Origin: Blastomussa wellsi
Taxonomy: Eukaryota; Cnidaria; Anthozoa; Scleractinia; Plerogyridae
Assembly (NCBI GenBank): GCA_947652115.1
Contig: OX393566.1
Span: 11,797,374-11,861,373, forward strand
DNA length: 64,000 nucleotides
Direction: 5' to 3'
Shown here: one piece after another, positions 16,123 to 64,000 of the stretch
How the letters are laid out: every line of letters begins with the position of its first letter
Numbering within the stretch: position 1 is the stretch's first letter
The notes under the pieces: model-generated
Database searches by the model: none
What the model was told of the DNA's origin: nothing
What the model saw: only the letters and a program-made list of their open reading frames with translations
Made by a program: the position numbers and the translations under genes

Positions 16123-16728
16123 TTAATAATTGAGAACAAATTTTATTCCGAAAGGGTGCCGAAGTGCGAACACAAGGAAGGAAAACCTATTTTTTTTCAA
16201 CATCGAAACACATTCTTTAAACTCATCTCGATAAAGTTTGCCAGCGTAATCTTCAAAAACAGCCTGCAAAGTCTTCCACGAGGGCGTGTAGAAAAGCACA
16301 AGCGCAGCCACGTTTTCGCGGAAAGAAGCTGTGATGCTGGTCATCTTCTGCGTAAGCACCCAAACACTGATGCCAATATGTCGGGCAGAAAAAGCAAGAT
16401 TTACCAGCGGCCCTGAGCGCTTTTTCACATCTTTCGTGGCTGCACAGTCATCGAGGATTATGAGAGCGTTGGAGCCCTCCAAAAACATGCATGCCATCTT
16501 CAGCCAGGGTTCCATTTGGTGTTGTTCGCAAATGACTACATAAAAACGCGGGTCCGCCAAAGCGAAACGATGAAAAGTTTTGTTATGCGCGAATGTCGGG
16601 CAGATGAGCACGATCTGGTCGAACTTGCCGCGGAAAGGGCCGAGGAGCTGATCAACCACAAACTGCGATTTGCCTGAATTTGTCGGGCCCACGATGAGGG
16701 CGTTGAACGGCACGTTGTTTGGATCCAT
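16123..16728 (-). CDS. A32/FtsK-HerA-type packaging ATPase, 201 aa, intact
   Basis: This enzyme is expected to pump the element's DNA into capsids. The start at 16728 (MDPNNVPFNAL) is chosen because the element B homologue starts at the same residue. Walker A is GPTNSGKS at residues 14-21, Walker B is ALIILDDC at 88-95, and LTQ near residue 128 fits the sensor motif. The gene start lies 8 bases from the stop of the capsid candidate, a compact arrangement typical of viral operons. This is the only uninterrupted A-type ATPase in the window: units 2-4 keep only its first 149 codons. The DDC in place of the usual DE leaves the general base uncertain. Confidence 0.88.
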   Translation of the reverse strand: MDPNNVPFNALIVGPTNSGKSQFVVDQLLGPFRGKFDQIVLICPTFAHNKTFHRFALADPRFYVVICEQHQMEPWLKMACMFLEGSNALIILDDCAATKDVKKRSGPLVNLAFSARHIGISVWVLTQKMTSITASFRENVAALVLFYTPSWKTLQAVFEDYAGKLYRDEFKECVSMLKKNRFSFLVFALRHPFGIKFVLNY

Positions 16729-16735
16729 TCTTCTT

Positions 16736-17945
16736 CTAGTATTCCACAGACTCAAATTGCTGCCCCAAAATATTCATTTGCGAGTCTCTGATGACGAAAA
16801 TGTGGCAGCTCATTTTGCCTCCTCCGCTCGCCTTCCTCTCGAGCTCGAGCAGAACCCCGTTTTGCGTGTTCACAGGCCGTGTGCCGCTGCCGTGCAGCCA
16901 CGGATCTGTCATGGAGCGCAGATCGACCAGAAGCCCGAACTTGTCTTCGCTCCAGAACTTTGTCTTGTTCATGTGGGGCGAAGCGGCGGACCATCTCCCA
17001 CATGTCCCTCTTTGTGATGCCGGTGTTGAAGAGCCTGTTGGGCTTGTCTTTCACCGTGACGTTGACTTTCGTCAAGCCGGGGTTGATGAACTTTTCTGAA
17101 TCTCTGGCCCCCGCGGCGTAAGGCTCGACGAACAGGAGAAGGATCGCTTTCAAGGACCGGCTCTGGGGGTTGATGCTGAGGTTGATCTTTTCATCGCTTT
17201 TGAGGAAGGTGTGCGTTTTCAGCAGATGGATGTCATCGAAGGCGAAGGTCTTCCCCTTGTGGTAAACACTGCGCGCCTCGTGCGCCAGCGGCTTGCTGCT
17301 CATCATTTCGTACTCGATCCTGATGTTCGTCAGCCTGTATTTCAGTTTTTCCGGGTCTGAGCCTTTGACAACCTGCGAGGCCTGGGCGAGGATCAGCTGA
17401 AACATGAGTTCTTGGAAGAGCGCTTGGGGATAAAAGACACCGTGGTCGGTGAAAATTTGGTGGTCCAGCCGGATCCGATATTCGGCGAGCGCGTTTTCCG
17501 CGTCAACGCCCGAGGTTTTCTTATCCTCACTGTTCGAGCGGACCTTGCAGAGATCCTCGCTTTTAATCCCGTCGAGCTGCATGTTGTCTCGCTCCTCCTG
17601 CGAGAGAAAAAGGTCCTCCCAGGTCTTCCAAATGTCATAACCGCCGATGTTCTGCAGATCTGCGACCCCGAACTTCACAATCAGCCTGTAGACCAGAGCG
17701 CGCCCGACGTTTTGTACGAGGAAGTTGTTGGGGTCACCTCCTGAAAGATCTATGTTAAAAATCAGCGCGAGCGAGCCGGGCACGAGGACCTCGTTTTCAC
17801 CCAGCTTGGGCACCCAGACATTCAGGGTATCGCCGGGGCTGGCCTCGCTCGGATTGAAGGTGAAGCGCTGCGTTGAACGCTCGAATTTATCCGCCTTGAG
17901 AAATTTTTCTGTGTGTGTTGGTCGAAGGTTTGCTTGCACCGCCAT
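16736..17945 (-). pseudogene. Candidate major capsid protein, unit 1, frameshifted
   Basis: It matches the intact 408-codon gene of unit 4 (53212-54438). The protein looks beta-rich: NPSEASPGDTLNVWVPKL near the N-terminus, then LVPGSLALIF, DHGVFYPQALFQEL, RLTNIRIEYE and LLLFVEPYAAG. Its length, beta-strand pattern and place beside the packaging ATPase fit a double-jelly-roll Polinton capsid protein, but this is by context and recall. A deletion of about 19 bases near 16977 removes the FFPQKMTPH region and shifts the last quarter; the normal end (ESVEY) remains in another frame at 16736-16972. Start 17945, divergent from the coiled-coil gene. Confidence 0.7.
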
Positions 17946-17978
17946 ACAAACAGAAAAAAAAATTTTATTTAATACACA
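17946..17978. promoter_or_regulatory. 33-bp divergent promoter between capsid candidate and coiled-coil gene
   Basis: Only 33 bases separate the two start codons. The stretch is a run of A followed by TTTTATTTAATACACA, which could serve as a TATA-like core. The same short AT-rich gap is kept in every unit of both element types. Confidence 0.45.
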
Positions 17979-19354
17979 ATGGCGGAAGGTGGCGATTCAC
18001 ATCCCCTTGGACACGAAGACCCTGACCTTGACGTTGCAATCGACAACGATGGCGATGACGATGAACAAGAGGTTAGCCGCACCGGCCCTTTTGTGCCGGG
18101 CACCGCTTCCACACCCTATCATGGCGGCGAAGAAATTGAAATGGAGACAAGGCAACACGACCCGAGCGCCCTGCCTGACGAATCCTATGTTGAAACTCCT
18201 TTGTTTGGTGATTTTGTGAATGTTGACAAACCAACAATTCTTGAAAGAGCAAGGGGCTTTATCAAAAGTAGATTCCCAAAGGTGGACTTCGGAAAATAAG
18301 GGCCAATTGGTTTCTCCAAAAAGGCTGGAAATGAGAGAACAATTGTTTCCTTTGGGCCAAAAGGTGGTGAGGCTGAAATTTTCAGAAAAGATGGACGAAG
18401 TCTTCTCTCAAAATTCACAGACAAGTTCAAAAAAGCCCTTGGACCAGAAGCTGAATATCTGATTGCTCAAGAAAAAAAGAGCGAAAGAGAACAACAACAG
18501 GAATTGAGAGAGGCCGAACAACAATTAAGAGAGGGTGAAAAAATTGATGCAGAAAAAACCAAAACAACACAAGGGGTTCGAAATCTGAGAATCAGACTTG
18601 AGCACACTCAGGCAGAAATTGGTGCACTTCAGGATGAACATGGTTCAAATGTTGAAAGTGAGGCGGAACTGCGCAGACTTAAGCAACTGGAAAAAATCTT
18701 CAAACTGATCTCGAAAACGAAAAGAAAGAGGTTGCTTCACTCGAAAAACTTGCAAAAAATAAAGCGAAAGCACAACAAAAGGTTGACAAAATCAGAGCAG
18801 GCCTTGCTGAGACACAAAAAAGAAGAAACGGTCTTCAACAAAATCTGAACGAAACGAGAACGCTTGATGAATTAAATGAACAGGAGGCCGAGCTCCAGCG
18901 CCAAAATGAAGAAGACAGGGCGGTCATCGACGATGAGAACGCTTCACCCTCTGAAAAGCAAGCCGCGGAAGCCCGAGTTGCAGAAAGAACCGAGGAGCTC
19001 ACACGTCTGCAAACGCAGATTGCGGAAAGAGAAAGAACCATGCCGCTTCGAGAACGCGTAAAAGAGATCTTCAAGAAATACGGCGTGACCGTCACGGCTG
19101 TTCTTCTTGCTGCTGGTGTCACGATCGGCGCCGTCGTCGGCATTATAAACAACTCGCTGAAAGCCACCGCAAAAGGGTTGGGGAATGGTTTGAAAGAGAT
19201 TGGAAAAAAACTTGCAGGCATTCTCCCCGGGCTGATCGGCTCGACTGTTTCTTTCCTTTTCAAAGCGGCTGGGGAGGTCGTCTCTTTTCTGGCGGAGCAC
19301 GTCTGGCTTTTGATTTTGGGTGTGGTCGCGTTTCTGGTCGAGCAGCGCCGTTAA
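17979..19354 (+). pseudogene. Acidic coiled-coil membrane protein, unit 1, broken
   Basis: The acidic leader (MAEGGDSHPLGHEDPDLD) with GTASTPYHGGE is followed by FPKVDFGK and a TAA at 18297-18299. The same frame continues with a long Glu/Lys/Gln-rich coiled coil. A frameshift near 18690 moves the rest to another frame, which ends with a basic EIFKKYGVTVTA and three hydrophobic segments (about 19085-19150, 19215-19260, 19300-19340). Intact length would be about 455 codons. The TAA is present in all four units, so it predates amplification. Its stop overlaps that of the next gene on the other strand. A virion membrane or scaffold role is possible but unproven. Confidence 0.75.
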
Positions 19355-20934
19355 CGCAATGCAAAGAAAAGCAACCCCGCAACCCCAACCACGCCAACAG
19401 CGACAGCTTTTTCGTTGTTTTGATGGCTGTCTGAGCCAGCCGCGGGTGTTGGTTCTTCTGTTTGCACTGCAGGCTTTGGATCTTTTTTGCTTTCAGCTGT
19501 GACTGTGACTGCCTTGTGAACAGGGCTGTTTGGCGGGTTCGGTCTCCCGCCATCCACCTTTTGAAGGCCCACTTTTTTCGCGCTCGTGTTAACGTTGTTT
19601 ATCCCCAGCTTCATACCTTGCACCGCTTGTTTGAGATAGTTGTTATAACCGATTGTGCTTTCTGTGTTGATCTCCATGTTCCCCGGCATCAGCCACGCGC
19701 CGGGGCAAACAGCAAGGTTAAGCCAAACATTGGCCTCGTCAACGGCAAGTTCGTATCTTTGAACTGACTTGGCCAGGTCTGGCTGCCGGACTGCGTCTTC
19801 CACCAAGACGAGGAACTCGCTCTGGGCTTCTTTTGCTCTGCCTCCCGCCACCAAAATGCTGCTGCGGACGTTTACTTGCGCGCCCAAGACGCAATAAACG
19901 AACGCCTCTATCGACTGGTTAATTCGCGACAAATCGGCCTGGGTCAACCCTGCCGACGTTTTGGGTGCAAACCAGTTGAATTGCTCTTCCGCGGCATCGT
20001 TTCTAATGAAACACACTGAAATTCCTTTTTCAGAAGCCCTTGGGTCCTCGTCATCAAATTTTGCTTTTGCTGATGGATAGGGAACGTCCAAAACAAAAGG
20101 ATCGTGGCAATAAATATATACGCTGCCTAGTCCATGATTCGGGCCGTTCGAAAAGCGGAAATCCGTCGAGGGGTCAATTTCCAACTCTGCACATATTCTT
20201 TTCCACGAGGCTTCGTCGAAATGATTCTCGAACTGACTCCATGTCGGGTCCCCCGGCAATGCGCTGACGCTTTGGATGCCTCCGAGTTGGAATAGTATGC
20301 ACCGAACCGTGAAATAGACGTGGAAAATATAAAACGCCCGCACTTGCGGCGGCAGCATTGTGCTGTCGAATACTTCTAGTGAGATTCCGCAGCCTGTCGT
20401 CGCACACCACACCGCAAAATTCAGCTGCTGGTCCCAAAAAGACAGATTGGGGCCCGACAGCCATTTTCTCGCGGGCTTTGACGTTTCGAACTTCAGGTGC
20501 TCCTTTTGGAAGACCTCTCTGAACTTTGTTGTAAAATACTTTTCAGGGGTGACATAAATTTTGATTTCTTTGTTTAAAGTTTTTTTCAAACTCGCCGCCG
20601 CTTCTTCGAATGGAACTGCTGGAACAGCTAGCGGTCTTTTTTCTGTTCGGGGCGTCAGTTGCAGAGGGAAGCCCTCAAAGTCATCGTCAATCAAACCCAA
20701 CGCTTTTTTCATTCCTGCGCTCCAATATTCTGGATCTGAACCGAAGACGCTTTGCAGACTCCCTGGTCCTTCTTTCCAGAATATTTCGGCTGTTGCTGTG
20801 TTGTCCGGCGCAAAAAACACCTGTGCTTCGAATTGACTTTTGTCTGCCCTTGGAAATCGTGCTGACAAAGCTGTCCACGCATTGTTTTGTGCGAGCTTCG
20901 CATTCACGGCCTGTGCTACTTTCCCGAGAAACAT
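19351..20934 (-). CDS. Large Polinton protein with C-terminal membrane anchor, 527 aa, intact
   Basis: The frame is fully open. The start at 20934 (MFLGKVAQAVNAKLA) is preferred over the upstream ATG at 21108, which would overlap the divergent gene at 20992. The first 490 residues look globular (FWKEGPGSLQSVFG, WLSGPNLSFWDQQL, GPNHGLGSVYIYCHD). A Pro/Thr/Glu-rich linker follows and a final hydrophobic segment (AVAVGVVGVAGLLFFAL) suggests tail anchoring. Gene B's homologue is the site where A's terminus is joined. Probably a structural, particle-surface or entry-type protein by context; the family is not characterised. The stop overlaps the coiled-coil gene stop in TTAA. Confidence 0.82.
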   Translation of the reverse strand: MFLGKVAQAVNAKLAQNNAWTALSARFPRADKSQFEAQVFFAPDNTATAEIFWKEGPGSLQSVFGSDPEYWSAGMKKALGLIDDDFEGFPLQLTPRTEKRPLAVPAVPFEEAAASLKKTLNKEIKIYVTPEKYFTTKFREVFQKEHLKFETSKPARKWLSGPNLSFWDQQLNFAVWCATTGCGISLEVFDSTMLPPQVRAFYIFHVYFTVRCILFQLGGIQSVSALPGDPTWSQFENHFDEASWKRICAELEIDPSTDFRFSNGPNHGLGSVYIYCHDPFVLDVPYPSAKAKFDDEDPRASEKGISVCFIRNDAAEEQFNWFAPKTSAGLTQADLSRINQSIEAFVYCVLGAQVNVRSSILVAGGRAKEAQSEFLVLVEDAVRQPDLAKSVQRYELAVDEANVWLNLAVCPGAWLMPGNMEINTESTIGYNNYLKQAVQGMKLGINNVNTSAKKVGLQKVDGGRPNPPNSPVHKAVTVTAESKKDPKPAVQTEEPTPAAGSDSHQNNEKAVAVGVVGVAGLLFFALR

Positions 20935-20991
20935 TGCGTTTATATATTTCAAGTTTTTTTCAATTGAAAATTTGTTCGGAACAAAATAAAA
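20935..20991. promoter_or_regulatory. 57-bp divergent promoter with TATATA
   Basis: It lies between the starts of the membrane-anchored protein (-) and the minor capsid candidate (+). TATATATTTC at 20941-20950, read on the minus strand, sits 7-13 bases before the left start; AAAATAAAA precedes the right start. The sequence is the same in units 2-4. Confidence 0.45.
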
Positions 20992-21660
20992 ATGGTTGTG
21001 CTTACCGTTTCTACGTCTTCCAATCCTTGCACCGTCTATTTCGATAACCCGATTCCAAAGGCTGATTACGTCTGCCTGTTGTCTTGTTCGCTTCCAAATT
21101 CGTGGCATAATTTGAAAAAAGATGGTGTCATTGCAATGTCTGATCTTGATGGTAAAAATGCTGTTCCTATTACTTTACTCAGAGGGTATTACACTCTTGA
21201 AACCATGGCTCAAAATATTGAACACGCTTTCGCTTCATTCGATGTAAAACTTCCCACTCAAATCAATACACCTGTTGGTGGAATGGTCATTGCCAACTAG
21301 GAGAATAAAAAAATCACTCTTGACAAAGACTTGTCCAATTTTCTTGGCATTTCCCGCGTTTTGATGTTTAGAACTTTCGTCAAACGGCTCCAGATTCCGT
21401 CAAGTTTCTTTATCCATTGCGACTTGGTTGACCCCAATCGAAATTTGTTCAACGGCAAAGCTTCGTCCCTTCTTGCTAAGTTTGACATCCGTGGGGATGC
21501 TTTCCAAAAAGTCCACTATCAAGCGGGCACACAGCCGACCTTTCGTGACGCTGCTTCGTTTCATGATGTCAACAGCGTCACGCTTTCTGTCAAAGACGTG
21601 GATGGCGAACTTTTTGACTTTCACGATCACCCACTTGAATTCGACTTGCAAATCATTTAA
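20992..21660 (+). pseudogene. Candidate minor capsid (penton-like) protein, unit 1, one internal stop
   Basis: Two open halves (20992-21297 and 21301-21660) lie in the same frame, split by a single TAG at 21298-21300. The first half begins MVVLTVSTSSNPCTVYF. The second has a beta-rich pattern (IHCDLVDPNRNLFNGKAS, VNSVTLSVKD, LFDFHDHPLEFDL). Total 222 codons. Size, beta pattern and location suggest a single-jelly-roll minor capsid protein, by analogy with other Polintons. The TAG is in all four units. Confidence 0.6.
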
Positions 21661-21684
21661 AAAAATATATTCTGCTGGTATACC

Positions 21685-22320
21685 ATGTCTTCATCAAATG
21701 TCTTGCCGAGTGCTCCTCCCATTTATCCTGAGCTTCCCCCGCTGGAAAGAGCTGAAAATTTCCGTCTTGGTGAGATCTCCAAAACTGAAAAAGAAATCGC
21801 CGGAGAAGTTGAACACCGGAGGCTTGTTTTGAAAAAATACACGAAAGCCCGCAAAGTGATTCACTATTCCGCGGTGTCTCTCGGCGTTGGAAGTGCCTTT
21901 CTGTCTTCCGGTGCCGTTGCTTCTTCTTTGACTGGCGTTGGAATCGTTGTAGGTGCGCCTGTTGCCGGAATTGCCGCCCTCCTTGGGTTTGCTTCGTCTG
22001 GCCTTGCTGCTGTTAACAGGAAGCTTGAGAGGAAAGTCAAAAAACACACGAAAATTCAAGCTCTGGCTCTTGCAAAGCACGACTCGATTAAAGAATATGT
22101 TTCTTAAGCTCTGGACGATGGAAATGTTTCCGACGCTGAATTCAAAATGATCTCTCGTGAAATGGAAAAATTTCGCGAACTCAGAGATAGATTGCGGGAA
22201 AACTTCGCGGAAAAACCGGTCGATTCTCCAGATGTTGAAACGATAAAAAAACAGGTTCGCCTCGAGCTTCGGAAAGAGTTTCTGAAAAAAATGTCGGCGT
22301 CCAACGCAAATTTGAACTAA
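21685..22320 (+). pseudogene. Membrane protein with central glycine-rich hydrophobic hairpin, unit 1, one internal stop
   Basis: It starts MSSSNVLPSAPPIYPEL, then a basic helical region, then two hydrophobic segments rich in Gly, Ala and Ser (about residues 55-80 and 85-102), then a basic helix. A TAA at 22105-22107 interrupts it, and the same frame continues for about 70 codons of charged coiled coil (KMISREMEKFREL) to 22320. PPIYPELPP is a late-domain-like proline motif. It is separated from the previous gene by 24 bases and lies in the same frame. Function unknown. Confidence 0.65.
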
Positions 22321-22438
22321 ACTTTGAATCTAAAGGAAGAAAAACCTATCTCTCTTTCAAGACCTCTGGTTAATCTGCGAAAAAAAGTTCCAACGTTTGA
22401 AGATTGGCAGAACTTTGGAAAATGCTTCTGCTTTTCCA

Positions 22439-23247
22439 ATCAATCAATCAATCAATAACTTTATTCATGTGTCAATTGTAAAAAATAGCAGTAATAAAAC
22501 CACTAAGTAAGGACACAACAAAATAATTTAAATAAAATAATAAATAACCATAATATTAATATACGAATAATTTGCATGTAAGATATGTACAGATTCTATC
22601 TCCAAACTTGCTCGCTCTCTCTACCTCTCTCTAATAAATAACTAAATATTAATACAAGAATAATATACATATAAAATATGTACAAATTCTACACTAACTC
22701 TCTCTCTAAAACCAACTCACTCTCTCTTCCTACACACTCACAATTATAATTCATCCATTTGCAATATATATAATAAATTAAATTATATGTATAATTAAAT
22801 AAAACTGAAATTTGCGGTCAGCAGAGTTAGGCCAAGGCACCTTGATTTCCAGACGATAAAAGCCTAACACATAAATAAGAATCATGCGCTGCAAACCAAG
22901 CAGTCCACACAGCCACCATCGTCCATTAGCATTTCCAAATCCAGTCCTCTAACTGCCCTCTTAAAACCCGCTAGTGAATGCAGAGTCCTAATACGGGAAG
23001 GTAGCTTAGCCCATAACACAGGTCCTAGATACCTAAGAGAATGCTTGCCATAATGAATAGATTTAAATCTTGGAATAGCAAATTCTTTAATTCTTAAGTT
23101 ATACACTATATGATTTGTTGAAAATAAATCTTGTATATAACTTGGTGCTAGCTTACATTTTACTTTATACATGATGGTCACTATATCTTGCAATCTACGG
23201 TTCATTAAGGTGGGCAAATTAGCCCATTCTAGCAACGCTTTTCTGTA
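22439..23247 (-). mobile_element. 5'-truncated LINE retrotransposon insertion in unit 1
   Basis: Units 3 and 4 lack this roughly 810-bp block, with the flanks joined as TTTTCCACACGCTTTTCTGC. On the minus strand it ends in an AATAAAG-like signal and a (TGAT)n tail at 22439-22460, and begins within the C-terminal part of a reverse-transcriptase polyprotein. A low-complexity AT- and CTCT-rich 3' untranslated region fills 22450-22860. No clear target-site duplication is visible. The clade is unresolved. Confidence 0.88.
22882..23247 (-). pseudogene. C-terminal fragment of a LINE ORF2 reverse transcriptase
   Basis: About 120 codons read LEWANLPTLMNRRLQD, IMYKVKCKLAPSYIQDLF, FKSIHYGKHSLRYLGP and LWAKLPSRIRTL, ending in a Cys-containing tail. 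This arrangement follows the reverse-transcriptase domain of LINEs common in cnidarian genomes. The 5' truncation at about 23247 removes everything upstream. Confidence 0.85.
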
Positions 23248-23416
23248 CACGCTTTTCTGCATTTTCGAAGAACTTTCAACGCCCGTTTGCAGAGCGAGGT
23301 CAGACGGATTACTCAACAAGTTGTTGAGGTAATGTCAGAGCTGGGTTCTGTTCGAGTTTGCGTGGTCGGTCACCGCTCTCCTGTCACGCGTATTTTATAA
23401 AGGTTTCGCTGTCATA

Positions 23417-23641
23417 TTATAACCCCTGGAAGGATTCAAGGCGGTGCTTTTGTCCATTTTTTAAACACGCGGCACATAAACCGGTTTTTCCGCAAACGCT
23501 GCATTTGCGACAATAGATTATTTTTGTAATCCGCCCTCGTTTTTCACAAAAAGGGGCCTCTGACAGTTCCTCGTGCACCTCGTCCCAACCCGTTTCTTTT
23601 CTCTTCGTCTGCTGCGTCTGCATCGTCACTTGCTCTGCCAT
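23417..23641 (-). CDS. Small zinc-binding protein, 74 aa
   Basis: The start at 23641 (MAEQVTMQTQQ) is preferred to an upstream ATG at 23716. A basic TKRKETGWDEVHEELSEAP leads to CRKCSVCG and LCAACLKNGQKH, four closely spaced CxxC-type pairs that fit a zinc ribbon or zinc knuckle. It may be a DNA- or RNA-binding regulator of the element. The family is not recognised. It is open in units 1-3 and frameshifted in unit 4. Confidence 0.6.
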   Translation of the reverse strand: MAEQVTMQTQQTKRKETGWDEVHEELSEAPFCEKRGRITKIIYCRKCSVCGKTGLCAACLKNGQKHRLESFQGL

Positions 23642-23762
23642 TTTGTTTTGGTGCTTTTCTCTAATTGGGGCTTTCTCTTGGGGCTTTCTCTGCCTCAGCC
23701 CGCGCATCAAGCGCAAATTTGAACTAAACTTTGAATCGAAAAATGAAAAATCTTTCTGAGTG

Positions 23763-24349
23763 TTATTTGCGCGTGACGTTGTGTGATGTTGTCACGCGTG
23801 ACGTTGTGTGATTGTCACGCGGCACATTGCGTGACAGGTCACACACAGGGACAAAACCCTTGTCGGGGGTGCTCGGTGGCTGTTTGTTGCCTGGCCTCCG
23901 CCAGGACTTTCGCTGACAAAGCGGCTGTCCCCATTTGAAATCCCTCGGGATCTCGGGTTGGATCCCGAGGGATTTCTGAGCACCCCCTGTTACCAGTAGG
24001 GCCCAGGCGGGTTCACCCGAGGAGACTTGTCCCACTGGAAGGACTTCCCCTATACCTGGTGGTTCACCATCCGCACAAGCCTTTAGCAGGATTCAGAAAG
24101 TGGCCAACTTTCACCTCCCAGAGCTTCACCAGAATATGTGAACTTACTTGTTTTTTTTCAGTTCGCTTATTTATTGTGTCCAGTCTGGCGTTTACTTCCA
24201 TTGTGGTGGCCTTTCTTTGTCCCTTGCAAAGAAAATCCCCTTACGCATGCGATTTCCGGTGATGATGAAATTTTCACCCCAGAGCCCTTTCGTTTGAATT
24301 CGGAGAGAGCCTGGTGAAGACTTCCTGTTTTTCTGAGAAACCAGTCATC
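23763..24349. promoter_or_regulatory. Conserved non-coding region of element A with GTGAC repeats
   Basis: No convincing gene lies here; a 90-codon minus-strand frame is composed of the repeats below. At 23773-23845 the motif GCGTGACGTTGTGTGAT is repeated and alternates with GTCACGCG, giving several inverted GTGAC/GTCAC pairs and two TGACGT half sites. A hairpin (separate entry) follows. The region lies between two minus-strand genes and is kept in all four units, apart from a roughly 60-base deletion of 24290-24350 in unit 4. It may be a promoter or replication control region. Confidence 0.4.
23938..23975. promoter_or_regulatory. Perfect 15-bp stem, 8-base loop hairpin
   Basis: AAATCCCTCGGGATC (23938-23952) and its exact reverse complement (23961-23975) flank the loop TCGGGTTG. 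It is unchanged in all four units. It could be a transcript-end or processing hairpin, or a protein-binding palindrome. Confidence 0.7.
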
Positions 24350-24727
24350 TCATAAATAGTCAAATCGGTAATCCGGAAATTCTTCTAGTTCATAATCGAA
24401 GTAACGTGGATGGCTTAAAAAGTGAATCTTTCTGTTTTTGAAACACAGTCTACAAAGTTCATTTGTCTCGTCTGTGTAATTATTTTTTCGAAGCAAAACT
24501 TTTGTGACTTGTTGTTTCTCTGTGCAAAATGGCGCCGATTGAATTTGGAGGTGAATTATGTCGAAGCCGAGGTCCAACTTTTCTTTGATCTTCAAGGTAA
24601 GATATTCTTTGTTTATTTTCTCACAAAGTTCGGCTGGAAGGTTTTGAGGTGCCTCTGTAATCATGCCGCAGAACGGATTTGCTTCGCCGACTTGCAGAAC
24701 ATCCGCTCCTATATTTGCTGCTGCCAT
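24350..24727 (-). CDS. Right-terminal gene of Polinton A, 125 aa
   Basis: It starts inside the right inverted repeat at 24727 with MAAANIGADVLQ, the same 12 residues as the polymerase start at the other end, then diverges at the repeat's inner edge (VGEANPFCG). It has a helical middle and a Cys/His cluster (LCRLCFKNRKIHFLSHPRY) that could bind zinc, ending DYELEEFPDYRFDYL. The frame is open in all four units. Function unknown; a terminal-gene position suggests early expression. Confidence 0.65.
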   Translation of the reverse strand: MAAANIGADVLQVGEANPFCGMITEAPQNLPAELCEKINKEYLTLKIKEKLDLGFDIIHLQIQSAPFCTEKQQVTKVLLRKNNYTDETNELCRLCFKNRKIHFLSHPRYFDYELEEFPDYRFDYL

Positions 24728-25005
24728 GTTTTCGTATATTCTTGTGCGGAATATTTCTTCAAATGGAAAATAATTATGCGACACAATATTCAAGTACATG
24801 CATTTCTTCAACTGGGAAATTTGGTTGCCATGTTTTCGTATATTCTTGTGTGGAATACTTCTTCAAATGGAAAATAATCATGCGACACAATATTCAAGTG
24901 CATGCGTTTCTTCAACTGGGAAATTTGGTTGCCGAAAAAAAAATGCGCTCTCCTAATTTGGTTGCCTTGGCTGCCGAAAAAAAAATGCGCTCTCCAAACA
25001 CATAT
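24691..25005 (-). repeat. Right terminal inverted repeat of element A, unit 1
   Basis: It is the reverse complement of 8399-8711, with the same internal 105-bp and 41-bp duplications. It ends at CCAAACACATAT and directly abuts the B-type gene. Confidence 0.92.
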
Positions 25006-26742: not shown

Positions 26743-26778
26743 TGTATATTAAACAAAAATATTTTTTTGTTGATATAG
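26743..26778. promoter_or_regulatory. 36-bp divergent promoter of element B
   Basis: It sits between the B coiled-coil (-) and B capsid candidate (+) starts. It is AT-rich with AATATTTTTTTGTTGATATAG, matching the position and base composition of the gap at 17946-17978. Confidence 0.4.
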
Positions 26779-27919: not shown

Positions 27920-27926
27920 TATATAG

Positions 27927-52539: not shown

Positions 52540-52577
52540 AATTAAATCTCAATTAAAAAATTAATAACATATAAAAA

Positions 52578-53204: not shown

Positions 53205-53211
53205 TCTTCTT

Positions 53212-54438: not shown

Positions 54439-54471
54439 ATAAACAGAAAAAAAAAATTTATTTAATACACA

Positions 54472-55844
54472 ATGGCGGAAGGTGGCGATTCACATCCCCT
54501 TGGACACGAAGACCCTGACCTTGACGTTGCAATCGACAACGATGGCGATGACGATGAACAAGAGGTTAACCGCACCGGCCCTTTTGTGCCGGGCACCGCT
54601 TCGACACCCTATCATGGCGGCGAAGAAATTGAAATGGAGACAAGGCAACACGAACCGAGCGGCCTGCCTGACGAATCCTATGTTGAAACTCCTTTGTTGG
54701 GTGATTTTGTGAATGTTGACAAACCAACAATTCTTGAAAGAGCAAGGGGCTTTATCAAAAGTAGATTCCCAAAGGTGGACTTCGGAAAATAAGGGCCAAT
54801 TGGTTTCTCCAAAAAGGCTGGAAATGAGAGAACAATTGTTTCCTTTGGGCCAAAAGGTGGTGAGGCTGAAATTTTCAGAAAAGATGGACGAAGTCTTCTC
54901 TCAAAATTCACAGACAAGTTCAAAAAGCCCTTGGACCAGAAGCTGAATATCTGATTGCTCGAGAAAAAAGAGCGAAAGAGAACAACAACAGGAATTGAGA
55001 GAGGCCGAACAACAATTAAGAGAGGGTGAAAAAATTGATGCAGAAAAAACCAAAACAACACAAGGGGTTCGAAATCTGAGAATCAGACTTGAGCACACTC
55101 AGGCAGAAATTGATGCACTTAGGATGAACATGGTTCAAATGTTGAAAGTGAGGCGGAACTGCGCAGACTTAAGCAACTGGAAAAAATCTTCAAACTGATC
55201 TCGAAAACGAAAAGAAAGAGGTTGCTTCACTCGAAAAACTTGCAAAAAATAAAGCGAAAGCACAACAAAAGGTTGACAAAATCAGAGCAGGCCTTGCTGA
55301 GACACAAAAAAGAAGAAACGGTCTTCAACAAAATCTGAACGAAACGAGAACGCTTGATGAATTGAATGAACAGGAGGCCGAGCTCCAGCGCCAAAATGAA
55401 GAAGACAGGGCGGTCATCGACGATGAGAACGCTTCACCCTCTGAAAAGCAAGCCGCGGAAGCCCGAGTTGCAGAAAGAACCGAGGAGCTCACACGTCTGC
55501 AAACGCAGATTGCGGAAAGAGAAAGAACCATGCCGCTTCGAGAACGCGTAAAAGAGATCTTCAAGAAATACGGCGTGACCGTCACGGCTGTTCTTCTTGC
55601 TGCTGGTGTCACGATCGGCGCCGTCGTCGGCGTTATAAACAACTCGCTGAAAGCCACCGCAAAAGGGTTGGGGAATGGTTTGAAAGAGATTGGAAAAAAA
55701 CTTGCAGGCATTCTCCCCGGGCTGATCGGCTCGACTGTTTCTTTCCTTTTCAAAGCGGCTGGGGAGGTCGTCTCTTTTCTGGCGGAGCACGTCTGGCTTT
55801 TGATTTTGGGTGTGGTCGCGTTTCTGGTCGAGCAGCGCCGTTAA
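54472..55844 (+). pseudogene. Acidic coiled-coil membrane protein, unit 4, broken
   Basis: No 13-base deletion, so the first 106 codons are open as in unit 1; shared TAA at 54790-54792; A-run change near 54926; one base lost near 55120 (CACTTAGGATG). C-terminal 160 codons (55362-55844) open. Confidence 0.8.
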
Positions 55845-57415
55845 CGCAATGCAAAGAAAAGCAACCCCGCAACCCCAACCACGCCAACAGCGACAGCTAT
55901 TTTGTTGTTTTGATGGCTGTCTGAGCCAGCCGCGGGTGTTGGTTCTTCTGTTTGCACTGCAAGCTTTGGATCTTTTTTGCTTTCAGCTGTGACTGTGACT
56001 GCCTTGTGAACAGGGCTGTTTGGCGGGTTCGGTCTCCCGCCATCCATCTTTTGAAGGCCTACTTTTTTCGCGCTCGTGTTAACGTTGTTTATCCCCAGCT
56101 TCATACCTTGCACCGTTTGTTTGAGATGGTTGTTATAACCGATTGTGCTTTCTGTGTTTATCTCCATGTTCCCCGGCATCAGCCACGCGCCGGGGCAAAC
56201 AGCAAGGTTAAGCCGAACATTGGCCTCGTCAACGGCAAGTTCGTATCTTTGAACTGACTTGGCCAGGTCTGGCTGCCGGACTGCGTCTTCCACCAAGACG
56301 AGGAACTCGTTCTGAGCTTCTTTTGCTCTGCCTCCCGCCACCAAAATGCTGCTGGGGACGTTTACTTGCGCGCCCAAGACGCAATAAACGAACGCCTCTA
56401 TCGACTGGTTAATTCGCGACAAATCGGCCTGGGTCAACCCTGCCGACGTTTTGGGTGCAAACCAGTTGAATTGCTCTTCCGCGGCATCGTTTCTAATGAA
56501 ACACACTGAAATTCCTTTTTCAGAAGCCCTTGGGTCCTCGTCATCAAATTTTGCTTTTGCTGATGGATAGGGAACGTCCAAAACAAAAGGATCGTGGCAA
56601 TAAATATATACGCTGCCTAGTCCATGATTCGGGCCGTTCGAAAAGCGGAAATCCGTCGAGGGGTCAATTTCCAACTCTGCACATATTCGTTTCCACGAGG
56701 CTTCGTCGAAATGATTCTCGAACTGACTCCATGTCGGGTCCCCCGGCAATGCGCTGACGCTTTGGATGCCTCCGAGTTGGAATAGTATGCACCGAACCGT
56801 GAAATAGACGTGAAAAATATAAAACGCCCGCACTTGCGGCGGCAGCATTGTGCTGTCGAATACTTCTAGTGAGATTCCGCAGCCTGTCGTCGCACACCAC
56901 ACCGCAATATTCAGCTGCTGGTCCCAAAAAGACAGATTGGGGCCCGACAGCCATTTTCTCGCGGGCTTTGACGTTTCGAACTTCAGCTGCTCCTTTTGGA
57001 AGACCTCTCTGAACATTGTTGTAAAATACTTTTCAGGGGTGACATAAATTTTGATTTCTTTGTTTAAAATTTTTTTCAAACTCGCCGCCGCTTCTTCGAA
57101 TGGTACAGCCAGCGGTCTTTTTTCTGTTCGGGGCGTCAGTTGCAGAGGGAAGCCCTCAACGTCATCGTCAACCAAACCCAACGCTTTTTTCATTTCTGCG
57201 CTCCAATATTCTGGATCTGAACCGAAGACGCTTTGCAGACTCCATGGTCCTTCTTTCCAGAATATTTCGGCTGTTGCTGTGTTGTCCAGCGCAAAAAACA
57301 CCTGTGCTTCGAATTGACTTTTGTCTGCCCTTGGAAATCGTGCTGAAAAAGCTGTCCACGCATTGTTTTGTGCGAGCTTCGCATTCACGGCCTGTGCTAC
57401 TTTCCCGAGAAACAT
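55841..57415 (-). CDS. Large Polinton protein with C-terminal membrane anchor, unit 4, 524 aa, intact
   Basis: Frame complete from MFLGKVAQAVN to the anchor. A few substitutions from unit 3, for example EGPWSLQS and LKQTVQGMKLG. Confidence 0.82.
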   Translation of the reverse strand: MFLGKVAQAVNAKLAQNNAWTAFSARFPRADKSQFEAQVFFALDNTATAEIFWKEGPWSLQSVFGSDPEYWSAEMKKALGLVDDDVEGFPLQLTPRTEKRPLAVPFEEAAASLKKILNKEIKIYVTPEKYFTTMFREVFQKEQLKFETSKPARKWLSGPNLSFWDQQLNIAVWCATTGCGISLEVFDSTMLPPQVRAFYIFHVYFTVRCILFQLGGIQSVSALPGDPTWSQFENHFDEASWKRICAELEIDPSTDFRFSNGPNHGLGSVYIYCHDPFVLDVPYPSAKAKFDDEDPRASEKGISVCFIRNDAAEEQFNWFAPKTSAGLTQADLSRINQSIEAFVYCVLGAQVNVPSSILVAGGRAKEAQNEFLVLVEDAVRQPDLAKSVQRYELAVDEANVRLNLAVCPGAWLMPGNMEINTESTIGYNNHLKQTVQGMKLGINNVNTSAKKVGLQKMDGGRPNPPNSPVHKAVTVTAESKKDPKLAVQTEEPTPAAGSDSHQNNKIAVAVGVVGVAGLLFFALR

Positions 57416-57472
57416 TGCGTTTATATATTTCAAGTTTTTTTCAATTGAAAATTTGTTCGGAACAAAATAAAA
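57416..57472. promoter_or_regulatory. Divergent promoter with TATATA, unit 4
   Basis: Sequence identical to 20935-20991. Confidence 0.4.
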
Positions 57473-58138
57473 ATGGTTGTGCTTACCGTTTCTACGTCTT
57501 CCAATCCTTGCACCGTCTATTTCGATAACCCGATTCCAAAGGCTGATTACGTCTGCCTGTTGTCTTGTTCGCTTCCAAATTCGTGGCATAATTTGAAAAA
57601 AGATGGTGTCATTGCAATGTCTGATCTTGATGGTAAAAATGCTGTTCCCATTACTTTACTCAGAGGGTATTACACTCTTGAAACCATGGCTCAAAATATT
57701 GAACACGCTTTCGCTTCATTCGATGTAAAACTTCCCACTCAAATCAATACACCTGTTGGTGGAATGGTCATTGCCAACTAGGAGAATAAAAAAATCACTC
57801 TTGACAAAGACTTGTCCAATTTTCTTGGCATTTCCCGCGTTTTGATGTTTAGAACTTTCGTCAAACGGCTCCAGATTCCGTCAAGTTTCTTTATCCATTG
57901 CGACTTGGTTGACCCCAATCGAAATTTGTTCAACGGCAAAGCTTCGTCCCTTCTTGCTAAGTTTGACATCCATGGGGATGCTTTCCAAAAAGTCCACTAT
58001 CAAGCGGGCACACAGCCGACCTTTCGTGACGCTGCTTCGTTTCATGATTTCAACAGCGTCACGCTTTCTGTCAAAGAAGTGGATGGCGAACTTTTTGACT
58101 TTCACGATCACCCACTTGAATTCGACTGCTGGTATACC
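57473..58138 (+). pseudogene. Candidate minor capsid protein, unit 4, internal TAG, fused downstream
   Basis: Shared TAG at 57779-57781. A 27-base deletion near 58128 removes the natural stop, so the frame runs on into the next gene. Substitutions HDFNSV and KEVDGEL are private. Confidence 0.62.
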
Positions 58139-58774
58139 ATGTCTTCATCAAATGTCTTGCCGAGTGCTCCTCCCATTTATCCTGAGCTTCCCCCGCTGGA
58201 AAGAGCTGAAAATTTCCGTCTTGGTGAGATCTCCAAAACTGAAAAAGAAATCGCCGGAGAAGTTGAACACCGGAGGCTTGTTTTGAAAAAATACACGAAA
58301 GCCCGCAAAGTGATTCACTATTCCGCGGTGTCTCTCGGCGTTGGAAGTGCCTTTCTGTCTTCCGGTGCCGTTGCTTCTTCTTTGACTGGCGTTGGAATCG
58401 TTGTAGGTGCGCCTGTTGCCGAAATTGCCGCCCTCCTTGGGTTTGCTTCGTCTGGCCTTGCTGCTGTTAACAGGAAGCTTGAGAGGAAAGTCAAAAAACA
58501 CACGAAAATTCAAGCTCTGGCTCTTGCAAAGCACGACTCGATTAAAGAATATGTTTCTTAAGCTCTGGACGATGGAAATGTTTCCGACGCTGAATTCAAA
58601 ATGATCTCTCGTGAAATGGAAAAATTTCGCGAACTCAGAGATAGATTGCGGGAAAACTTCGCGGAAAAACCGGTCGATTCTCCAGATGTTGAAACGATAA
58701 AAAAACAGGTTCGCCTCGAGCTTCGGAAGGAGTTTCTGAAAAAAATGTCGGCGTCCAACGCAAATTTGAACTAA
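58139..58774 (+). pseudogene. Glycine-rich hairpin membrane protein, unit 4, fused to the previous gene
   Basis: Starts MSSSNVLPSAPPIYPEL at 58139, in frame with the upstream gene after the 27-base deletion; the joint open frame is 57812-58561. Shared TAA at 58559-58561. One Gly to Glu change (VAEIAALLG) falls in a hydrophobic segment. Confidence 0.62.
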
Positions 58775-58777
58775 ACT

Positions 58778-59062
58778 TTGAATCTAAAAGAAGAAAAACC
58801 TATCTCTCTTTCAAGACCTCTGGTTAATCTGCGAAAAAAAGTTCCAACGTTTGAAGATTGGAAAACTTTGGAAAATGCTTCTGCTTTTCCACACGCTTTT
58901 CTGCATTTTCGAGGAACTTTCAACGCCCGTTTGGCAGAGCGAGGTCAGACGGATTACAAGTTGTTGAGGCAATGTCAGAGGTGGGTTCTGTTCGAGTTTG
59001 CGTGGTCGGTCACCGCTCTCCTGTCACGCGTATTTTATAAAGGTTTCGCTGTCATATTATAA
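58778..59062 (+). pseudogene. Possible coding remnant at the LINE-free site, unit 4
   Basis: An open frame of 94 codons (LVNLRKKVPTFEDWKTL, FPHAFLHFRGTFNARL, DYKLLRQCQRWVLFEF) follows in the same frame as the previous gene, just after its stop. It may be the lost tail of that protein or a separate small gene. No family recognised. Confidence 0.3.
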
Positions 59063-59280
59063 CCCCTGGAAGGATTCAAGGCGGTGCTTTTGTCCATTTT
59101 TTAAACACGCGGCACATAAACCGGTTTTTCCGCAAACGCTGCATTTGCGACAATAGATTATTTTTGTAATCCGCCCTCGTTTTTCACAAAAGGGGCCTGT
59201 GACAGTTCCTCGTGCACCTCGTCCCAACCCGTTACTTTTCTCTTCGCCTGCTGCGTCTGCGTCGTCACTTGCTCTTCCAT
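59057..59280 (-). pseudogene. Small zinc-binding protein, unit 4, frameshifted
   Basis: One A is missing near 59190 (CACAAAAGGGG against CACAAAAAGGGG), so the Cys-rich half is out of frame. Confidence 0.65.
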
Positions 59281-59402
59281 TTTGTTTTGGTGCTTTTCTC
59301 TAATTGGGGCTTTCTCTTGGGGCTTTCTCTGCCTCAGCCCGCGCATCAAGCGCAAATTTGAACTAAACTTTGAATCGAAAAAAAGAAAAATCTTTCTGAG
59401 TG

Positions 59403-59934
59403 TTATTTGCGCGTGACGTTGTGTGATGTTGTCACGCGTGACGTTGTGTGATTGTCACGCGGCACATTGCGTGACAGGTCACACACAGGGACAAAACCCT
59501 TGTCGGGGGTGCTCGGTGGCTGTTTGTTGCCTGGCCCCCGCCAGGACTTTCTCTGACAAAGCGGCTGTCCCCATTTGAAATCCCTCGGGATCTCGGGTTG
59601 GATCCCGAGGGATTTCTGAGCACCCCCTGTTACCAGTAGGGCCCAGGCGGGTTCACCCGAGGAGACTTGTCCCACTGGAAGGACTTCCCCTATACCTGGT
59701 GGTTCACCATCCGCACAAGCCTTTAGCAGGATTCAGAAAGTGGCCAACTTTCACCTCCCAGAGCTTCACCAGAATATGTGAACTTACTTGTTTTTTTACA
59801 GTTCGCTTATTTATTGTGTCCAGTCTGGCGTTTACTTCAATTGTGATGGCCTTTCTTTGTCCCTTGCAAAAAAAATCCCCTTACGCATGCGATTTCCGGT
59901 GATGATGAAATTTTCACCCCAGAGCCCTTTCATC
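59403..59934. promoter_or_regulatory. Conserved non-coding region with GTGAC repeats and hairpin, unit 4
   Basis: GTGAC/GTCAC repeats at 59413-59485 and the perfect hairpin at 59578-59615 are unchanged. A deletion of about 56 bases at 59931 removes sequence just after the stop of the terminal gene. Confidence 0.45.
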
Positions 59935-60312
59935 TCATAAATAGTCAAATCGGTAATCCGGAAATTCTTCTAGTTCATAATCGAAGTAACGTGGATGGCT
60001 TAAAAAGTGAATCTTTCTGTTTTTGAAACACAGTCTACAAAGTTCATTTGTCTCGTCTGTGTAATTATTTTTTCGAAGCAAAACTTTTGTGACTTGTTGT
60101 TTCTCTGTGCAAAATGGCGCCGATTGAATTTGGAGGTGAATTATGTCGAAGCCGAGGTCCAACTTTTCTTTGATCTTCAAGGTAAGATATTCTTTGTTTA
60201 TTTTCTCACAAAGTTCGGCTGGAAGGTTTTGAGTTGCCTCTGTAATCATGCCGCAGAACGGATTTGCTTCGCCGACTTGCAGAACATCCGCTCCTATATT
60301 TGCTGCTGCCAT
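59935..60312 (-). CDS. Right-terminal gene of element A, unit 4, 125 aa
   Basis: Frame open, same protein as unit 2. Starts in the inverted repeat with MAAANIGADVLQ. Confidence 0.65.
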   Translation of the reverse strand: MAAANIGADVLQVGEANPFCGMITEATQNLPAELCEKINKEYLTLKIKEKLDLGFDIIHLQIQSAPFCTEKQQVTKVLLRKNNYTDETNELCRLCFKNRKIHFLSHPRYFDYELEEFPDYRFDYL

Positions 60313-60592
60313 GTTTTCGTATATTCTTGTGCGGAATATTTCTTCAAATGGAAAATAATTATGCGACACAATATTCAAGTACATGCATTTCTTCAACTGG
60401 GAAATTTGGTTGCCATGTTTTCGTATATTCTTGTGTGGAATACTTCTTCAAATGGAAAATAATCATGCGACACAATATTCAAGTGCATGCGTTTCTTCAA
60501 CTGGGAAATTTGGTTGCCGAAAAAAAAAATGCGCTCTCCTAATTTGGTTGCCTTGGCTGCCGAAAAAAAAAATGCGCTCTCCAAACACATAT
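60276..60592 (-). repeat. Right terminal inverted repeat of element A, unit 4
   Basis: Copy of 24691-25005, again joined to the B gene at CCAAACACATAT. Confidence 0.9.
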
Positions 60593-61406
60593 TTCCGCTT
60601 CACGTACGGTGCAAACCACGGGCTGGGAAGCGTTTACATTTATTGCCACGACGTGCCCTATCCATCGGCAAAAGCAAAATTCGACGACGAGGACCCTAAG
60701 GCGTCAGAAAAGGGAATTTCAGTATGCTTCATAAGAAACGACGCCGCGGAAGAGCAATTCCAATGGTTCGAGCCCAAAACCTCGGCAGGTTTGACCCAGG
60801 CGGGTTTGTTGCGAATAAACCAGTCGATAGAGGCGTTCGTTTACTGTGTCCTCGGCGCGCAAGTTAACGTGAGAAGCAGCATCCTGGGAAATGGGGGACG
60901 CGCAAACGAGGCGCAAAGTGAGTTCCTTGTCTTGGTGGAAGATGCGATAAGGCAAACGGATCTGTTTAGGTCAGTTCAAATATACCAACTTGCCGTAGAC
61001 GAGGCAAAGGTGAGGCTCAACCTTGCTGTGTGCCCGGGGGCCTGGCTGATTCCCAGAGAACACGGTTGGCTAAAACAACCAGCCCAAACAAGCTACGCCA
61101 GGTATGAAGCTGGGGGTCAACGACGGGGTAAATAAAAGCCCAGAAAAAGCAGCGCTTCAGCTAATGGATGGCGGGAAATCAAAAATTAACCCGCAAAACA
61201 GTCATCATTCAAATCCGAAGACAGCAGAAAAACAGCAAGCGCCTCTGATCCAAACAGCTGCAGAAGAGCAAACTCCAACGGAGCAAACGGAATCTGAACC
61301 AATGACAACGGTTGACTCCGGCAGTGGGTCACATGATGTGAACAAAATAGCTGTCGCTGTTGGCGCGGTTGCAGTTGCGGGTTGGGCATTCTTGTCAATT
61401 CGTTAG
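60593..61406 (+). pseudogene. B-type membrane-anchored protein remnant, unit 4
   Basis: Same headless structure and frameshift; CAG in place of the TAG, as in unit 3, so 61104-61406 is open to the anchor. Confidence 0.82.
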
Positions 61407-62329
61407 CGCTGCTTCCTCGTTTTGTCGTTGAAGGTCGGATTCTTGCTCACGCAGTTCATCCAACCTTTTTGTTTCGTTGAGCCTTTTTTCCATGCTGTTT
61501 CTTTCGCTCTCTTTGGCCGCGAGGCCATGAGTTGGTCGATCCGGGTTTGTTCTTTGCCTTTACTTTTTGCTTGTTCTCCAAGAGCTAACACCTTTATTTT
61601 TGCATTTTCAAAACCTGTCTTAAGATTTTTTATCAGTTGCTGCTGTCTCCGCAGTTCTTCCTCACTTTTAACATTCGAACCATATTCATCTTTTAACCCA
61701 TCAATCCTTGTTTGAGTTTGCTCAATTCTGTTTCTCAGATTTTGAACCTCTTGAGTAGCTTTTTCATTTTCTGCGGCAATTTTTCCAGCATCTCTTAATT
61801 GTTGTTCGGTCTCTCTCAATCTCTGACGTTGTTCTCTTATGCTCTCATTATCTTAAGCGATAATTTCTTGTGCCATCGTCCCAATTTTTTCTATGATTTC
61901 TTTTGTAAGATTTGGAGTTAGCCTTTCTTTTCCTGTTGACCTTTCTTTGGTGAAAAGGGCATATATTCTTTTGCCGGCTCCAGCCATTTTTACTTGTAAT
62001 TTCCCCTTTAGGCTGTAAGAGGCTTCAAGATTTGTCGCCGAGCTTTCTTAAAATATTCCCTTGAGACTATTCCACGCTTTTTCTCTCATTGATTGCGCAC
62101 TGCTGTCCACCAAAGGAGATTCCTCGGTGTAAGACTTGTCAGGCATCCCGCTCTGTTGGTGCAGCGTTGTTTGTATTTCATAGTGTTCGCCACTATGGAA
62201 GGGTGTCGATGCAGAGCCAAGCTGAAATGGACGGGTTGTATTGACCTCTTGTTCATCTTCATGGTCATCGTGGTCAATAGCATGGTCAAGTTCGGGGTCG
62301 TCGTAACCAAAGTGTCCACCTTCTGCCAT
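61403..62329 (-). pseudogene. B-type coiled-coil protein, shortened, unit 4
   Basis: Same as unit 1: stop after SLKGIF at 62048, coil to 61403, no membrane part; MRETEQQ start of the coil as in unit 3. Confidence 0.78.
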
Positions 62330-62365
62330 TGTATGTTAAACAAAAATATTTTTTTGTTGATATAG

Positions 62366-63506
62366 ATGGTGGCGGTCCAAGCAAACCTTCGGTCAACGCA
62401 CAACGAGAAAAAGCTCGGCACGATGAAAGCCGAGCGTGCAGTAAAACGTATCACCTTTGATCATAGCGACGCCAGCCCCAGCGAGACCCTGTATGTTTCG
62501 GTGCCCAAGCTGAATGAGAATGAGGTCCTCCTGCCCGGCTCGCTCGCACTGCTCTTCTACACCGACTTGTCTGGAGGGCACGCCAACAACTTCCTCGTTC
62601 AAAACGTCGCGCGCACTCTCGTCGACAAGCTGGTTGTGAAGTACGTGGGCACCATACTGCAGGACTCGGTGGGGTATGACATCTTCAAGATCTGGGAGGA
62701 CCTTTTCCTCTCGCAGGAGGAGCGGAACAACATGCTGCTGGACGACATTCACAGTGAGGACGTTTGCAAGATCTGCTCAAACGCTGGGAATAAGAAAACC
62801 TGGGTATTGGCACGGAAAAAGCGCTGAACAATGTTTTCGGAACGAAATACCAAATCAGACTGGACCACCAGATTCTGACCGACCACGGAGTCTTTTACCC
62901 CCAAGCTCTTTACAACGACCTCGTGTTTGAGTTGACACTTGCGCCGGCCTCACAGGCTGTCAAAGGCTCTGACCCAACAAAACTGAAATACACGCTGACC
63001 AACATCCAGCTCGAGTACGAAATGATCAGAAGCCAGACTCTGGCGGACAACGCACACAGTGTCTACTCCGCTGGCAAGGAATTCATCTACGATCACGTGA
63101 TGCAGGCTGAGGTGGTCACCTTCGCAAAAGGCACGGAAACAAGGATTAACCTCAGAGTCAACCCCCAGAGAAGGTCCCTTAAAGGCATCCTTCTCCTCTT
63201 TGTTGAGCCATATGTCGCTGGCACCAGGGATTCAGAAAAGTACCTCAACCATGGCCTGACGAAAGTCAGCGTTATGGTGAACGGCTCACCCAACATGCTG
63301 TACAACAACGGAGTCGAAGGCAAAGACATTTGGGAGGAAGCCAGCCGCTTCTTTGTCAAGACAAAAACGCCGCACGTGAATCTGACGAAGTTCTACACCG
63401 ATGACAAGTTCGGGCTTTTGATCGATTTGCGCTCAATGGCAGATGACTCGCAGGTGACGCGCAGATGAACTTATTGGGGCAGCAATTAGAATCTTTGCAA
63501 TACTGA
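62366..63506 (+). pseudogene. B-type candidate major capsid protein, unit 4, broken
   Basis: Same frameshift (near 62797) and C-terminal deletion as unit 1; LPGSL variant as in unit 1. Confidence 0.78.
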
Positions 63507-63513
63507 TATATAG

Positions 63514-64000
63514 ATGGACCCCAAAAACATACCGTTTAACGCTCTTGTTGTTGGCCCGACTAATTCAGGCAAATCAAGGTTTGTTGTGGACCAGCTCTGT
63601 GGCCCTTTCCGTGGCAAGTTCGACTACATGGGGCTCATCTGCCCGACATTCGCGTATAACAAGACTTTTCATCGCTTCGCTGAGGCAGACCCTCGATTTT
63701 TTGTTATCATTTGCGAACAGAATGAGGTTAAACCATGGTTGAAGCTTGTTTGCTGGTTTTTGGAGGGCACCAACGCACTCATAATCCTCGATGACTGCCC
63801 AGCCTCGAAAGATGTAAAAAAGCGCACAGGCCAGCTGGTCAATCTCGCATTCAGCGCTCGCCACACAGGACTAAGCGTGTGGCTGCTCACCCAAAAGATG
63901 ACCAGCATCACAGCTTCTTTCCGCGAAAACGTAGCTGCAATTGTGCTTTATACACTCCCTCATGCAAGACTTTGAAAGCGGTTTTTGAATATTACGCCGG
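63514..64000 (+). pseudogene. B-type packaging ATPase, unit 4, cut by window end
   Basis: Opens MDPKNIPFNALVVGPTNSGKS, Walker B ALIILDDC, frameshift near 63952, and continues beyond the window. Confidence 0.85.

What the first reader, a model, noticed from the sequence alone, without database searches (positions are those of the whole stretch)
16281..64000. Four tandem 11.6-12.4 kb copies of a chimeric two-Polinton segment
The block from A's ATPase interior to B's truncated small gene recurs with identical junctions at 28713, 41150 and 52757. Polintons are normally dispersed single insertions; a head-to-tail array of a segment made of two opposed elements is unusual. Copies carry distinct indels and substitutions, which argues against a simple assembly duplication.
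Basis: seen in the sequence. Interest (0 to 1): 0.85.

Follow-up and report, generated by a model that had tools for sequence, protein, structure and literature searches.

The report
Tandem array of Polinton virus fragments
Beside satellite DNA, half of one old integrated virus fused to a fragment of a second has been copied head to tail at least four times, most likely by faulty DNA repair and misaligned recombination rather than because it is useful.

Summary
A 12.4-kb segment repeats head to tail at 16281-28712, 28713-41149, 41150-52756 and 52757-64000 (the last cut by the window end). One identical junction occurs three times. Copies are 99.08-99.59% identical.

Anatomy: element A is a Polinton bounded by 98%-identical inverted repeats (8399-25005), with polymerase, integrase and packaging-ATPase matches and an ORF that models as a double-jelly-roll capsid protein. 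B is an opposed 3.7-kb Polinton fragment abutting A's right repeat. Each unit is A's right half plus B.

Mechanism (inferred): one illegitimate joining made the first duplication; misaligned homologous exchange enlarged it. Copies 1 and 2 differ by 48 events before one point in the unit and 9 after; copies 2 and 3 by 7 and 63, the footprint of a one-unit unequal exchange. Coding changes show no detectable purifying selection, and capsid and ATPase copies are mostly damaged, so the units look like passengers.

Tandem arrays grown from transposons are known. Seven library searches listed no paper on a Polinton array. Reads and the right end were unavailable: the genome search did not complete. 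Real in sequence, ordinary in kind.

The parts
8399..25005 (+). Element A, Polinton-type, 16,607 bp between its inverted repeats
   Evidence: Inverted repeats 308/315 identical; DNA_pol_B_2, rve (below cut-off) and Pox_A32 matches inside
8399..8711 (+). A left terminal inverted repeat
   Evidence: holds two 104-bp tandem copies
24691..25005 (-). A right terminal inverted repeat, inside every unit (also near 37127, 48744, 60276)
25006..28712 (+). B, opposed Polinton fragment, truncated at both ends; first copy
   Evidence: 71-87% identical to A's minus strand in 6 matched stretches
16281..28712 (.). Unit copy 1, 12,432 bp
28713..41149 (.). Unit copy 2, 12,437 bp
41150..52756 (.). Unit copy 3, 11,607 bp
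52757..64000 (.). Unit copy 4, cut by the window end
28700..28729 (+). B|A junction, identical at 41137 and 52744
20471..20611 (.). Exchange breakpoint zone in copy 1 (32907-33047 in copy 2)
22439..23246 (.). Block in copies 1 and 2 only (34875-35682 in copy 2), one edge (AATC)n, probably a retroposon insertion
   Evidence: LINE-like tail is recalled knowledge
16752..17945 (-). A capsid ORF, copy 1 (copies: 29184-30395, 41621-42832, 53212-54438); only the copy-4 ORF ends like its family
   Evidence: double-jelly-roll model of the copy-4 ORF
19351..21108 (-). Conserved 585-aa ORF of unknown function (copies 31787-33544, 44224-45972, 55841-57589)
   Evidence: open in 4 of 4 copies; 1796 relatives at E<=0.001; no Pfam match
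16123..16755 (-). A packaging ATPase, whole only upstream of copy 2; the unit border at 16281 cuts it in copies 2-4
   Evidence: Pox_A32 E 4.7e-10; unit border
10419..11384 (+). Part of A polymerase: DNA_pol_B_2 and Endonuclease_7 in one ORF; the surrounding ORFs lie in other frames
13121..14014 (-). A integrase ORF
   Evidence: rve E 0.0075, 16.9 bits, below the cut-off of 32.6; the 120 listed relatives are 65-81% identical and nearly all carry PF00665
27927..28388 (+). B packaging-ATPase piece
   Evidence: Pox_A32 E 5.6e-7
1..7616 (.). 147-bp satellite array beside the element (surroundings)
   Evidence: 51.8 copies, 97% matches

Best explanation
It is a young tandem repeat built in the host chromosome from two decaying Polintons. 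Shown: A abuts B in opposite orientation; one B|A junction recurs three times; the copies are a mosaic. Inferred: (1) A and B came together by insertion or rearrangement. (2) A break-repair or replication error joined the inside of B's small gene to the inside of A's ATPase gene without homology and so made the first duplication. (3) Misaligned homologous exchange (or a long conversion) between the 12-kb units added units; the latest had its breakpoint near 20.5 kb (33.0 kb in copy 2) and duplicated one unit. (4) The units now drift as passengers and collect insertions, small indels and coding damage.
For: Identical junction in 3 of 3 places. No shared base on the A side of the junction, and B's likeness to A stops at 28707. 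Copies 1-2 differ by 48 events before and 9 after column 4340, copies 2-3 by 7 and 63. Thirteen differences between the two one-unit stretches shifted across the breakpoint. The about 809-bp block is shared by copies 1 and 2 alone. Substitutions fit neutrality in the 585-aa ORF in 6 of 6 pairs. Precedent for the route: maize CRM tandem repeats.
Against: No reads were seen and the right end lies outside the window. One tract of gene conversion would leave a similar mosaic, and variants shared by copies 1 and 4 (14 sites, 12 within the first 2.1 kb) need a second event. The 585-aa ORF is still open in 4 of 4 copies. Microhomology on the B side of the junction cannot be tested without intact B.
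Confidence: 0.72

Rival explanations
1. Assembly artefact: fewer units exist, and haplotypes or misplaced reads were strung together.
For: The stretches on either side of the breakpoint differ at only 13 places in about 12 kb, close to what alleles or uncorrected reads can show. I could not reach reads or the rest of the genome (genome search busy in 15 of 15 tries).
Against: The junction joins sequences without shared bases on the testable side, so overlap alone should not create it. Other pairs differ by 0.5-0.9% plus unit-specific indels.
Confidence: 0.12
2. Circle route: the segment was excised as an extrachromosomal circle whose closing point is the B|A junction, amplified, and reinserted as an array.
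For: The same sequence facts as for the best explanation: one recurrent non-homologous junction. PMC3648361 names rolling-circle products as a possible contributor to such arrays (Discussion).
Against: Copy 1 runs without a break into A's single-copy left half, which fits growth in place; reinsertion by homology at A would be needed. The copies diverged unequally, so growth was stepwise.
Confidence: 0.1
3. Selected dosage: the host or a virus keeps extra copies of capsid-module genes for use.
For: The unit holds mostly late genes (capsid, ATPase part, 585-aa ORF), and the 585-aa ORF is open in 4 of 4 copies, its one length change in frame.
Against: Substitutions fit neutrality (few changes, low power). 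The ATPase is cut in copies 2-4 and copy 4's piece has a stop. The capsid C-terminal end matches the family in 1 of 4 copies.
Confidence: 0.03
4. Viral concatemer: the array is an integrated chain of replicating viral genomes.
For: Head-to-tail units of a virus-like element.
Against: The unit lacks A's left inverted repeat, polymerase and integrase, and includes a piece of a second element.
Confidence: 0.01

Closest known systems
CRM1TR and CRM4TR, tandem repeats derived from maize centromeric retrotransposons (PMC3648361; abstract and Discussion read)
   Same: Head-to-tail repeats made of part of a transposable element, a constant non-homologous junction, possible origin from nested related elements, growth by conversion or unequal exchange
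   Different: Those come from LTR retrotransposons at maize centromeres; here the source is two Polintons, the unit is 12 kb and at least four copies are seen
Tandem repeats and adjacent transposable elements in rye heterochromatin (PMC4857426; abstract read)
   Same: Transposable elements beside satellite arrays, with illegitimate recombination inferred
   Different: Plant subtelomeres and other element types; no Polinton unit
Terminons of rotifers (PMC6431247; passages read)
   Same: Large mobile elements that can lie in head-to-tail arrays
   Different: Retroelements that attach to telomeric repeats; nothing like that is seen here
Polintons of stony corals (relatives named Oculina patagonica and Orbicella faveolata)
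   Same: Closest named relatives of the 585-aa, integrase and capsid proteins (about 57-79% identity for the named rows)
   Different: Only protein rows were seen there; no array was examined

Membership tests
[quoted passage not shown]
   DNA_pol_B_2 E 4e-8, above cut-off, in ORF 10419-11384. Fragmentary: neighbouring ORFs lie in other frames and gave no polymerase match; protein priming not tested
Polinton/Maverick (element A) | RVE-type integrase | tested here: met
   rve E 0.0075, below Pfam's cut-off; relatives at 65-81% identity in the 120 rows listed, nearly all with PF00665
Polinton/Maverick (element A) | FtsK/A32-type packaging ATPase | tested here: met
   Pox_A32 E 4.7e-10, above cut-off
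[quoted passage not shown]
Polinton/Maverick (element A) | Single-jelly-roll minor capsid (penton) protein | not tested
   The conserved stretch 18462-18914 is a candidate by position only
Polinton/Maverick (element A) | Adenovirus/Ulp1-like cysteine protease | tested here: inconclusive
   No protease among Pfam matches of the ORFs given; not every ORF was given
Polinton/Maverick (element A) | Terminal inverted repeats and length of 15-20 kb | tested here: met
   308/315 identical; 16,607 bp; size range from PMC4028283
Polinton/Maverick (element A) | Target-site duplication at both ends (6 bp, recalled) | tested here: inconclusive
   None seen by eye; a hairpin abuts the left end and the two flanks may have been rearranged
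TE-derived tandem repeat | Head-to-tail copies of part of one or more elements with a constant junction | tested here: met
TE-derived tandem repeat | Exchange or conversion between units | tested here: met
   Mosaic of copies 1-2-3; exchange and conversion cannot be told apart
TE-derived tandem repeat | Presence on the chromosome in that copy number | not testable with these tools
   No reads; the genome search busy in 15 of 15 tries

The most novel reading that the evidence does not exclude
The array is a newborn macrosatellite made from endogenous viruses that serves the host as a small-RNA source against Polintons. Each unit carries capsid-module genes of two Polintons in opposite orientation, with 4 runs of at least 21 nt of perfect inverted identity between A's late region and B, beside satellite DNA, so transcripts could pair or feed a piRNA-like pathway. 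Nothing here tests transcription.
Probability: 0.05. Interest if true: 0.65.

Novelty: new member of a known kind. Interest (0 to 1): 0.3.

Why it matters
It catches an integrated virus turning into a large tandem repeat, with the founding junction and the latest exchange still readable in sequence. It also warns that counts of Polinton copies in such genomes may include tandem passengers that never transposed.

Tried and rejected
Rejected: viral-genome concatemer, because units lack the polymerase, integrase and left inverted repeat. Not supported: simple insertion of A into B's 585-aa-type gene, because the flank left of A gave no hit with the 120 proteins listed. My first label for the 585-aa ORF, major capsid protein, was wrong or at least unsupported: its model was poor (pLDDT 44.7), its profile found only one weak unrelated PDB chain, and the shorter neighbouring ORF proved to be the double-jelly-roll protein. 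In script and in my notebook entry 'MCP' therefore means the 585-aa ORF, and 'mCP_A' is the real capsid gene; its ratios there are spoiled by frame differences and were replaced. One search gave MCP (585-aa) ratios of 0.57-0.92.

The length difference: an insertion in copies 1 and 2 is likelier than a deletion in 3 and 4, because the edges do not give a clean deletion product (read by eye), but direction is not proven. Breakpoint scan: the null drew positions uniformly over the whole alignment, including columns missing from copies 3 and 4, and the statistic is inflated near the ends, so its counts are rough.

Led nowhere: junction scan of viral contigs, 0 matches; two viral-contig scans for relatives of the 585-aa protein, none confirmed; capsid profile against PDB sequences, 0 hits. 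Seven paper searches pairing Polinton (two of them with Maverick) with tandem, satellite DNA, tandem array, unequal crossing, segmental duplication, head-to-tail and tandem duplication showed no title or abstract start about a Polinton tandem array; one search listed 25 of 108 papers and 16 of 17. Papers opened: passages of PMC12220804, PMC12721341, PMC10120064, PMC6431247 and PMC11071308, abstracts of PMC4857426, PMC3648361 and PMC4028283, and the Discussion of PMC3648361 and the first part of the Findings of PMC4028283.

Full report
Observation. Self-comparison finds the segment 16281-28712 repeated head to tail at 28713-41149, 41150-52756 and from 52757 to the window end. Alignment of the four units gives identities of 99.59 (1-2), 99.08 (1-3), 99.16 (1-4), 99.44 (2-3), 99.30 (2-4) and 99.49% (3-4). 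The 30 bases across the junction are the same in 3 of 3 places and absent from 100 shuffles. The left part of A (8715-16280) has no second copy in the window, apart from the A/B relatedness near 15.2 and 16.1-16.3 kb and an internal repeat.

B begins where A's right repeat ends. It shows the C-terminal part of a 585-aa-type gene with a frame change, the capsid gene in separate ORFs, an ATPase piece and the start of the next gene. B is opposed to A and 71-87% identical to it in six matched stretches. A cnidarian or other marine invertebrate host is a guess, not a result.

Junction. B's likeness to A ends at 28707 and A's sequence starts at 28713. The base before 16281 in A differs from the base before 28713, so nothing is shared on that side; the other side cannot be tested without intact B. 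This fits end joining or a replication error for the founding step and does not look like homologous recombination. The mechanism is inferred.

Mosaic. Counting substitutions and indels, copies 1 and 2 differ by 48 events before and 9 after alignment column 4340, and copies 2 and 3 by 7 and 63. A breakpoint scan of the substitutions was equalled in 2 of 2000 (pair 1-2) and 20 of 2000 (2-3) uniform draws; pairs 1-3, 1-4, 2-4 and 3-4 gave 466, 129, 40 and 10 of 2000. The last two point to another change near column 945. Copies 1 and 4 share variants against 2 and 3 at 14 sites, 12 of them in the first 2.1 kb. So exchange or conversion happened more than once. Shifted by one unit across the breakpoint, two successive stretches differ at 13 places (9 in the tail part, 4 in the head part).

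Length difference. About 809 bp are present in copies 1 and 2 and absent from 3 and 4. One edge starts with (AATC)n, like the tails of some LINE elements (recalled), and no long inverted ends were found. An insertion before the last duplication would explain why both copies have it.

Function. In the 585-aa ORF, synonymous and nonsynonymous differences fit the neutral ratio in 6 of 6 pairs (p 0.46-1.0). The first 290 capsid codons and the ATPase piece give p 0.08-1.0 on very few changes; one ATPase pair had none. Power is low. The unit border cuts the ATPase in copies 2-4 and copy 4's piece has a stop. Only the copy-4 capsid ORF ends like its family. The copies therefore look like passengers. 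Against that, the 585-aa ORF is open in 4 of 4, which recent origin also explains.

Setting. A 147-bp satellite fills 1-7616, and the window does not show where it begins. Its closeness suggests heterochromatin but proves nothing.

Comparison. Tandem repeats grown from parts of transposable elements, begun by illegitimate joining and enlarged by conversion or unequal exchange, are described for maize CRM elements, with nested insertions proposed as a source (PMC3648361, abstract and Discussion). Rye gives a related case (PMC4857426, abstract). Seven searches of the held library listed no paper about a Polinton array by title or abstract start; subscription papers and most full texts were not seen. 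Hence: a new member of a known kind, with interest in its freshness and its source rather than in a new principle.

Noticed in passing
1-7616: A 147-bp satellite, 51.8 copies. In its first 3 kb the best self-match is at shifts of 1904, 586 and 1318 bases rather than 147, hinting at higher-order repeats.
   Followed up: partly
8279-8403: A near-perfect hairpin (predicted -77 kcal/mol) abuts or overlaps A's left end; it looks like a small inverted-repeat transposon.
   Followed up: partly
10419-11384: Endonuclease_7 and DNA_pol_B_2 matches lie in one ORF, a possible nuclease-polymerase fusion.
   Followed up: no
19351-21108: A strongly conserved 585-aa protein: 1796 relatives at E<=0.001 among 7992 scored, no Pfam match, poor fold prediction. 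Its function is unknown.
   Followed up: partly
10137-10505: A 189-bp in-place duplication, 78% identical, inside the polymerase region.
   Followed up: no
8469-8680 and 24722-24933: Each inverted repeat of A contains two 104-bp tandem copies; the same pair recurs in units 2-4.
   Followed up: no
22439-23246: Block of about 809 bp with 32% GC and an (AATC)n edge in copies 1 and 2 only, probably a retroposon of unknown family.
   Followed up: partly
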